Of a DNA stretch of 64,000 nucleotides, positions 51,421 to 53,640 are shown in pieces. Every line of letters starts with the position of its first letter. Positions within the stretch are counted from its first letter, which is position 1. Made by a program: the position numbers and the translations under genes. Origin of the DNA: Pyrococcus kukulkanii (GTDB lineage: Archaea; Methanobacteriota_B; Thermococci; Thermococcales; Thermococcaceae); assembly GCF_001577775.1 (NCBI RefSeq), contig NZ_CP010835.1, positions 1,116,001 through 1,180,000 of the forward strand. The letters are read 5' to 3'. Below the pieces are notes generated by a model that saw only the letters and a program-made list of their open reading frames with translations, made no database searches and was not told the DNA's origin.

Positions 51421-51921
51421 TTATCTCCTAAGAAACTCACCAACATCCGCTAGGTTCTTTATGAACCTTCTTTCTTCTTTTGGATTTACTATTCCCAACC
51501 CTATTACATCTCCCCATTCGTTCATCACAACTATTTTCTTGCTTCCTTGCCATTTTATTTCTTTAACGGCCTTTTTAGGTGCATCCTTTCCCGTTGTAAA
51601 GAGGAATGACGCTTTGGGCCCCAGGATTGCGTAGTTCTTTTCTATTTTAATGAAGCTGAAGAATTCGATGTTTGGGTAAAACTTTTCGACGAGGTTTTCA
51701 TCGACTTTTATAGTTCCAACAAACGTTCCAGCTCCATACGGTCTTATCCTGAGGTTCTCTATTACCCTCCACACATCCTCATTTACGGCATAAACATCTC
51801 TATACCTACCCTCAACGATTATAAAAAATTCGTGAAGAAGCTCTCCGTACTTTTCAGCTTCCTTCAAAATTAAATCAAGCTCCCAGGAAGAGGCTCTCCT
51901 AACTCTAATCTCACCACTCAT
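51421..51921 (-). CDS. Nip7-like ribosome biogenesis protein (PUA domain)
   Basis: 166 residues, matching the archaeal Nip7 homologs. The N-terminal alpha/beta domain has [21 protein letters not shown] and [12 protein letters not shown]; the C-terminal PUA domain has [40 protein letters not shown]. Nip7 binds U-rich RNA and acts in large-subunit assembly in eukaryotes. It starts at ATG 51921 inside the end of the acidic-protein gene (11-base overlap). Confidence 0.85.
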
Positions 51922-52090
51922 CCTCTTCCTCTTCCCACTCTTCTTCCTCTTCCTCGTACCATTCCTCTTCTTCCCACTCTTCCTCTTCCCAGTCCTCCCA
52001 GTCTTCCTCTTCTACCCAATCTTCTTCCATCTCTTCAAGGAGTTCCTCTTCCTCCTCGAACTCCTTTTTAACTTTCTTCTTTGGCTGCAT
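51911..52090 (-). CDS. Extremely acidic Glu/Trp-rich small protein
   Basis: 59 residues from ATG 52090 (GAGGG upstream): a lysine-rich head ([11 protein letters not shown]) followed by a tail of about 50 residues composed mostly of Glu with Asp and seven Trp spaced every 3-8 residues. By count 33 Glu, 4 Asp and 7 Trp. No fold can be predicted. It is directly upstream of and overlaps nip7, so translation is coupled; a role in RNA or ribosomal-protein binding is inferred only from that. An ATG five codons upstream is possible. Confidence 0.65.
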
Positions 52091-52111
52091 ACTGGGATCC
52101 CTCATTTGTGA

Positions 52112-53640
52112 TTATTTCTTTCCGGTTATAAATGTTTCTGAGAAATAGAAGTCTGGGAATAGCTCTTCTTCCTGAATATAGGACTTTCCAAGCTTTAACG
52201 CTGTATAAGCCTTTTCGAGTTCTCTTCCTAAGTAGAAAGCATGTCGTGGGGAAATTTTGAATTTCCCTAGAATTGTATCAATTATCGAATTTGGCTCGTC
52301 TCCCCTTATTGTTAAAACTAACCTTGTTCCCTCGTACGCATTTACCCATATTTTTCCATCTTCGATAAATATCCTGAAGTATACTTTCTCGATTTTTACG
52401 GGCTTGCTCTTTGCCCTAACGATATTCTCAGATTTTTCAAATCTTATGTTCTTCCTACGTTTTTCTTTCAGGATTAGGAGGGATAGCCCAACATCTTTAA
52501 GTCCTCCTAAGAGAACCATATCTAGCCCCCTCCTTAGTTCCCTTAGGCTTCCTCTGCATTTTGGACTCACTTCAGTCGTCAGGAGTAGGGAGATATTCAA
52601 TTCCCCTGCTAGACCTGCTAATATTACATTTATCCCTGGGCTATCAGCGTCGGTCATTTCAGTTACGTTCCCAACCCCTGATAGTAGAATATCCTTGGGA
52701 TTTCTCTCCCTGTAAAGGTATAGGGCCGTAACCGAGCGGGAGAAGTTAGGATAATGTTCTAGAATCGGATCAAGGATTATAACCTTATATCCAAGGTCTT
52801 TGGCTTTTTCTTTTAATTTTTCTAAGGAATTAACTCTCTCCTCTGGGTTTGTAGGAAATTCTCCCGTTTTCATATTAGTCGGTATTAGAACGACGGGTTT
52901 TTCCGTTACGAGATCTTCAACGTTGCTCCAGTCTATGCTCAATATTAAATCGACAACTTCTATGCCTTTCTCAAGTTCCTTCGTGTTAAGCGAGTCAATG
53001 GATATTGGAGCCTTGATTTTCTCCCTTATCTCGGGTATCATCTCAAGGAACTCTAAGTTTGTTTCCCCACTTACCATCCCAAGGTCAATTATATCTGCTC
53101 CTTCTTTCAGATAATATTCTGCCCTCTTGATGACATCTTCCATGCTGAGCCTTGGGGCATCTACTATCTCTCCCAAAATCCTAGTTGGAAAATCTAAGCC
53201 AATGGGCAAATCCCCAATTAAGAAGTTCCATGGCTTCTTTAGGGCTTTCCTTATATATTTTTATTTGAGACTTTATTCTTAATGTCCTGCACCCTCTTAA
53301 GGGCATCTTGGGAGAATAATTCATCCGCTGGCACTTCCTTACTGAGCTTGAAGCCCTTTCTTATAGCCCTGAGCACAACTGGCAAATCAACGGCATTCTT
53401 TGGCCCTTTATATGTTGGTATTCCTATTCTGTCCTCTATTTCTTGCGTTGATCCTCTGACAAGCCCAGGAACTAATATAATATCATACCCCTTTACCTTG
53501 ACCTTCTCTAAGTAGTCAGCTATCATCTTAGGAGTTAGAAAAGCTGCAACGGTAACGGGAGTTACAAAAACGTCACATCCTTTTCCGTATTTCCTAACTA
53601 TGGGTTCGGCAAGCCTGCCAGTTACTAGGAGTATCTTCAA
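52112..53640 (-). pseudogene. Dihydropteroate-synthase-like protein, split by a frameshift
   Basis: The upstream frame (53640-53251, TTG start) encodes MKILLVTGRLAEPIVRKYG ... QDIKNKVSNKNI, the N-terminal domain of archaeal DHPS-like proteins. The second frame (53209-52112) encodes the pterin-binding barrel (AEYYLKEGADIIDLGMVSGET, PISIDSLNTKELEKG, ILLSGVGNVTEM). The link RKALKKPWNFLIGDLPIGLD is open back to the N-terminal frame across AAAAATATATAAGG near 53245, so a single-base change separates the halves. The protein would be about 505 residues. The family is implicated in archaeal pterin synthesis. The second half lacks a good start of its own. Confidence 0.7.

What the first reader, a model, noticed from the sequence alone, without database searches (positions are those of the whole stretch)
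51911..52090. Glu/Trp repeat protein coupled to Nip7
Composition is extreme: a lysine-rich head, then about 50 residues of mostly Glu with seven regularly placed Trp. It overlaps nip7, an RNA-binding assembly factor. An acidic aromatic tail could mimic RNA or chaperone basic ribosomal proteins. I know of no described function.
Basis: inference. Interest (0 to 1): 0.58.

Follow-up and report, generated by a model that had tools for sequence, protein, structure and literature searches.

The report
Acidic tryptophan-ladder microprotein of Thermococcales archaea
A real but undescribed protein of about 50 residues, almost all glutamate with evenly spaced tryptophans, is found in nearly every genome of one order of heat-loving archaea; it is probably a floppy, negatively charged binder of other proteins, and its place next to the ribosome-factor gene nip7 is a local accident of one genus.

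Summary
The ORF is real: a 59-residue protein (33 Glu, 4 Asp, 5 Lys, 7 Trp; net charge about -32) starting at MQP, 52090-51911 (-), with its own TATA-like box and Shine-Dalgarno site, overlapping nip7 by 11 nt. Purifying selection is strong (pN/pS ratio 0.063 over six genus members). I found the family in 89 of 94 genomes of the order; the five without it are at most 86% complete. It matches no Pfam, NCBIfam or PDB entry, and 0 of 21 phylum genomes outside the order matched. The nip7 link holds only in the window's genus (8 of 94 nip7 loci). Elsewhere the gene is divergent from a gene of unknown function that precedes CDC48 (60 of 103 members), or lies near MFS/PALP or phosphate-transport-like genes. 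What travels with it: a lysine head, an acidic tail almost free of Lys/Arg, Trp every 4-6 residues, a C-terminal Trp (77 of 79 type-1 proteins). Trp spacing does not fit one helix face. Best reading: a disordered acidic-aromatic binder that shields a basic nucleic-acid-binding partner, as acidic histone-chaperone domains do; main rival, a DSS1-like binder of a ubiquitin-like fold. The partner is inferred, not shown.

The parts
51911..52090 (-). Acidic Trp-ladder microprotein CDS, 59 aa, [10 protein letters not shown]...EEEEDEW, stop included
   Evidence: conserved start MQP; pN/pS ratio 0.063
52091..52105 (-). In-frame upstream extension (MRDPS), probably not translated; overlaps the Shine-Dalgarno-like site
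   Evidence: not present in all relatives
52097..52103 (-). Shine-Dalgarno-like GAGGGAT
   Evidence: GAGG-type site at about the same place in relatives
52125..52132 (-). TATA-box-like TTTATAAC, inside the 3' end of the upstream gene
   Evidence: same place in genus relatives
51911..51921 (-). 11-nt overlap of the microprotein's end with the nip7 start
51421..51921 (-). nip7 (166 aa), downstream neighbour in this genus only
   Evidence: Pfam PF17833 and PF03657
52112..53640 (-). Dihydropteroate synthase-like gene (TIGR00284 type), upstream neighbour, in two frames in the window

Best explanation
The ORF encodes the window's member of an order-wide family of small, probably disordered proteins: a short PPKKKK-type basic head and a polyanionic tail that carries a tryptophan every 4-6 residues and, in the main form, ends in tryptophan. 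Shown here: it is a real gene under strong purifying selection, with a promoter-like box of its own at several unrelated loci, and the head, the near absence of basic residues in the tail, the Trp spacing and the C-terminal Trp are what is kept. Inferred: the tail works as a ladder of aromatic stickers on a negatively charged thread that lies in extended form over a basic surface of a folded partner and keeps it from unwanted nucleic-acid contacts, as the acidic domain of the histone chaperone APLF does through its aromatic anchors. The likeliest partners are abundant basic DNA- or RNA-binding proteins (histones, Alba, ribosomal proteins). In this genus it lies ahead of nip7 behind a TATA-like box inside the preceding gene; that coupling is probably incidental to its function. 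I put about 0.6 on the general class (disordered acidic-aromatic binder) and about 0.35 on the basic-partner shield.
For: Selection. Distribution. Tail: Lys/Arg after residue 14 in 3 of 2955 residues; 77 of 79 type-1 proteins end in Trp; among 32 non-redundant proteins Trp-Trp distances 4, 5 and 6 were seen 39, 39 and 36 times against 14.5, 12.5 and 10.6 in shuffles, and distances 1 and 2 never against 21.8 and 19.4. Not a helix stripe: mean resultant for Trp at 100 degrees 0.318 against 0.427 +- 0.039 for random placement; the excess is at 72-75 degrees, about every fifth residue. Own promoter: TTTAWA at -70 to -28 in 74 of 97 members against a mean of 4.4 in shuffles. Independence from neighbours: of 103 members, 60 divergent from the 258-aa gene before CDC48, 24 at MFS/PALP, 8 at nip7, 8 at phosphate-transport-like genes, 3 unassigned. 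Precedent: passages on APLF aromatic anchors in an acidic domain (PMC9328677).
Against: No partner was shown. AlphaFold2 on the single sequence gave two helices at mean pLDDT 80.6 and pTM 0.42, which does not say disordered, though a model without an alignment is weak evidence. The basic head does not obviously fit a pure anion mimic. If it were a general histone or ribosome chaperone, its absence from the 21 other phylum genomes searched would need explaining; that search is insensitive here, as it also missed the window's own genome.
Confidence: 0.35

Rival explanations
1. A DSS1/Sem1-like disordered adaptor: tryptophans in an acidic thread bind a ubiquitin-like fold (in archaea the SAMP modifiers, recalled) or the Cdc48/proteasome machinery.
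For: The disordered ubiquitin-binding motif of Dss1 is at least two aromatics, preferably Trp, in an acidic, extended context, and more Trp and more charge raise affinity (passages of PMC9381478). In 60 genomes the gene is divergent from the gene that precedes CDC48, and 42 of these loci also have moeA next to it.
Against: That paper gives two or three residues between the aromatics as best; here two between (distance 3) was seen 3 times and three between (distance 4) 39 times in 149 steps, with as many at 5 and 6. No DSS1-family match in 22 members at E up to 10. Not near CDC48 in the window's genus.
Confidence: 0.15
2. A partner of Nip7 or of large-subunit assembly.
For: Overlapping and co-directional with nip7 in all eight genus genomes in which nip7 was found.
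Against: None of the other 86 nip7 loci examined has an acidic ORF upstream, although the family is present in nearly all those genomes.
Confidence: 0.06
3. A free mimic of the acidic, aromatic-ending tails of single-strand DNA-binding proteins that dock on OB folds or polymerases (recalled).
For: 77 of 79 type-1 proteins end in Trp, nearly always after acidic residues.
Against: Type-2 members do not end in Trp; no OB domain is attached; the inner Trp are conserved as well.
Confidence: 0.1
4. A buffer for polyamines or other cations, with Glu and Trp giving salt bridges and cation-pi contacts.
For: Composition only.
Against: Fixed Trp spacing and the conserved basic head are more than a buffer needs.
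Confidence: 0.07
5. A low-complexity by-product or leader peptide without a protein function.
For: Simple composition.
Against: pN/pS ratios of 0.03-0.1; promoter-like box at several loci; near-universal presence in the order.
Confidence: 0.02

Closest known systems
DSS1/Sem1 (Rpn15), small acidic disordered protein of eukaryotes
   Same: Size, acidity, Trp in an acidic context (passages of PMC9381478; the rest recalled)
   Different: No Pfam match; Trp 4-6 apart, five to eight Trp in 70 of 79 type-1 proteins, a lysine head, ends in Trp; no homology shown
Acidic domain of the histone chaperone APLF
   Same: Acidic chain with aromatic anchor residues (passages of PMC9328677)
   Different: Part of a larger eukaryotic protein; here the tail is nearly the whole protein and histone binding is untested. 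One paper says archaeal histone chaperones have not yet been reported (passage of PMC10796010)
Acidic C-terminal tails of SSB-type proteins (recalled)
   Same: Acidic, with a hydrophobic or aromatic last residue
   Different: No attached OB fold; repeated inner Trp

Membership tests
DSS1/Sem1 | Sequence match to the family model | tested here: not met
   No such match among 22 members scanned against Pfam at E up to 10; the program's filters drop most weak matches
DSS1/Sem1 | Two Trp with two or three residues between them, in an acidic context | tested here: inconclusive
   Distance 4 in 39 and distance 3 in 3 of 149 Trp-Trp steps of 15 or less; 5 and 6 as common as 4
DSS1/Sem1 | Binds ubiquitin, the proteasome lid or RPA/BRCA2-type partners | not testable with these tools
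   Needs binding assays
Histone chaperone (acidic-aromatic type) | Acidic stretch with aromatic residues | tested here: met
Histone chaperone (acidic-aromatic type) | Binds histones and prevents non-native histone-DNA contacts | not testable with these tools
   Needs purified protein
Nip7-linked ribosome assembly factor | Conserved gene linkage to nip7 | tested here: not met
   8 of 94 nip7 loci, one genus only
Any curated family or solved structure in the libraries searched | Match in Pfam, NCBIfam or the PDB | tested here: not met
   only chance-level hits (best PDB hit Sec63 at E 1). PHROGs and PADLOC were not searched
SSB-type acidic tail | Acidic chain ending in an aromatic or hydrophobic residue | tested here: met
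   77 of 79 type-1 members end in Trp; type 2 does not
SSB-type acidic tail | Attached to an OB-fold domain | tested here: not met
   Type-1 proteins are 41-63 aa long in all

The most novel reading that the evidence does not exclude
This is the first archaeal acidic-aromatic chaperone or adaptor family: either the missing archaeal histone chaperone, or an archaeal counterpart in function of DSS1 that brings ubiquitin-like modifiers to Cdc48, beside whose gene it lies in most of the order.
Probability: 0.2. Interest if true: 0.85.

Novelty: new variant of a known kind. Interest (0 to 1): 0.55.

Why it matters
A protein kept in nearly every genome of an order that includes the main genetic model archaea (recalled), with an extreme composition, is absent from the family libraries searched here. 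It is small, has a built-in fluorophore set (seven Trp), and Thermococcus kodakarensis and Pyrococcus furiosus can be manipulated genetically (recalled), so its partner could be found by a pull-down. If it chaperones histones it would answer an open question about archaeal chromatin; if it binds ubiquitin-like modifiers it would bear on the origin of DSS1-like adaptors.

Tried and rejected
Functional coupling to Nip7: rejected as a general rule by synteny. Chance ORF: rejected. Amphipathic helix or coiled coil: Trp positions do not share a helix face, so the AlphaFold2 helices were not built on and no fold search was run. Family libraries and PDB: no relatives. Phage records: no match by tblastn. 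Phylum search: 57 of 115 genomes matched, all in the window's family f1; none of the 21 outside the order, but the same search missed the window's own genome, so its sensitivity is poor. 5'-leader GCCC box before the Shine-Dalgarno site: the helix I wrote shows no covariation, 62% of cells paired, and sliding the partner gives similar values, so I claim no structure. Rfam gave only chance-level matches in five loci. Papers: ten searches showed no description of this protein in their listings; the library lacks most subscription journals. Read, passages only: PMC10796010, PMC2890523, PMC9800685, PMC7531240, PMC4247193, PMC9328677, PMC9381478.

Full report
What is there. The ORF at 51911-52105 (-) exists. 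The protein has 59 residues with 33 Glu, 4 Asp, 5 Lys and 7 Trp. Its end overlaps the start of nip7 by 11 nt. A TATA-like TTTATAAC begins 42 bases before the start codon, inside the end of the upstream dihydropteroate synthase-like gene. The pattern TTTATAAC-N30-45-ATG has two matches in the window where 0.58 are expected, so by itself it proves little, but the box is at about the same place in the genus relatives printed.

Naming. Named Thermococcus MAG loci came, and one contig length (240,659) is shared by NZ_JACDNS010000002.1 and G090:C2, so the order is taken as Thermococcales. That the window's genus g1 is Pyrococcus I recall from genome sizes.

Is it coding? Codon comparison among six g1 genomes gave summed pS 0.889 and pN 0.056 (ratio 0.063), leaving out the last five alignment columns, which overlap nip7. 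Five g5 genomes gave 0.026; eight and ten Thermococcus-group (g3) genomes 0.101 and 0.105. One pair (G022-G039) gave 0.87 from very few synonymous changes. The synonymous sites drift, in many pairs to saturation, while the protein stays.

Distribution. By regular expression on fetched loci I collected 99 proteins in 86 of 94 genomes of the order. G073 and G085 and G068 have one that the expression missed, which makes 89 of 94; G089 has a second copy. The five without are G009, G045, G050, G051 and G061, 73-86% complete. G078 carries in addition a 28-aa remnant. Two forms occur: type 1 (79 proteins in 73 genomes; mostly M-x-PPKKKK) and type 2 (18 proteins in 18 genomes; MYPPKKKV or MYYPPKKKV, acidic end), with both in 6 genomes; two further proteins (G041, G067) start MPPKRRP and have few Trp. 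I call them relatives on the shared head, tail composition and shared loci; descent from one gene is inference. Outside the order none of 21 phylum genomes matched, with the caveat that this search also missed G000.

Neighbours. nip7 was found in 89 of 94 genomes. Among the 94 nip7 loci L001-L094 (four named MAG loci and two loci of G051 included), an acidic ORF (Asp+Glu over 25%, ending between -200 and +80 of the nip7 start) was found in 8, all g1. Of 103 members placed by script, 60 are divergent from a 258-aa gene without a Pfam match that precedes CDC48 (42 of these also next to moeA), 24 lie by MFS or PALP genes, 8 by nip7, 8 by a phosphate-transporter-like gene and an exported-protein-like gene (labels from my reading of the sequence, not from a family search), and 3 were unassigned; one of these, G073, shows the divergent arrangement. 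In G089 the MFS/PALP copy happens to be about 2 kb from nip7. The gene therefore changes neighbours, and a promoter-like box goes with it: TTTAWA at -70 to -28 in 74 of 97 members against 4.4 in shuffled upstream sequence.

What is conserved. In type 1: the basic head, a tail with almost no basic residues (3 Lys/Arg in 2955), Trp placed mostly 4-6 residues apart and never at distance 1 or 2, and Trp as the last residue in 77 of 79. The residue before Trp is Glu or Asp in 174 of 181 cases counted in 32 non-redundant tails. Trp positions are spread around a helix rather than on one face and are close to five-periodic. In g1 the Trp-acidic-Trp DNA pattern is unique to this gene in each of the eight genomes that match.

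How it may work. The pattern is that of evenly spaced aromatic stickers on a polyanion. Two described systems use this chemistry: the acidic domain of APLF, whose aromatic anchors bind histones, and Dss1, whose Trp pair in an acidic disordered chain binds ubiquitin. I prefer the first because the extreme charge suits a basic partner and because the order is rich in small basic DNA-binding proteins (recalled); I keep the second because of the CDC48 neighbourhood in 60 genomes. Neither partner is shown. A 2024 paper expects archaeal histone chaperones and says none has been reported. The AlphaFold2 single-sequence model shows two helices but has no alignment behind it.

Verdict. An undescribed (as far as the searches listed reach), order-wide, strongly selected microprotein family with a plausible class of mechanism and no partner yet.

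Noticed in passing
window 52112-53640 (-): The dihydropteroate synthase-like gene is split in two frames in this genome (residues 1-127 and 128-509 of the G010 relative map to different frames), while g1 relatives have one open frame of about 510. Sequencing error or recent frameshift.
   Followed up: partly
L148 1775-2551 and relatives: A conserved ~258-aa protein without Pfam or NCBIfam match, present in 91 of 94 genomes, lies directly before CDC48 in the loci read.
   Followed up: no
5' leaders of type-2 genes and g4 type-1 genes, e.g. L212, L169, L274: A GCCCC box followed by a G-rich Shine-Dalgarno sequence stands just before the start. In five genomes the pattern had nine matches: five before family genes, four inside other ORFs. 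No covariation.
   Followed up: partly
G078:C1:975046-975129 (L289): A 28-aa remnant of the family beside a PALP-like gene, apparently decaying.
   Followed up: no
L189 and L207 (G041, G067): Small acidic proteins starting MPPKRRP at the CDC48-side locus, with few Trp, possibly a third form.
   Followed up: no
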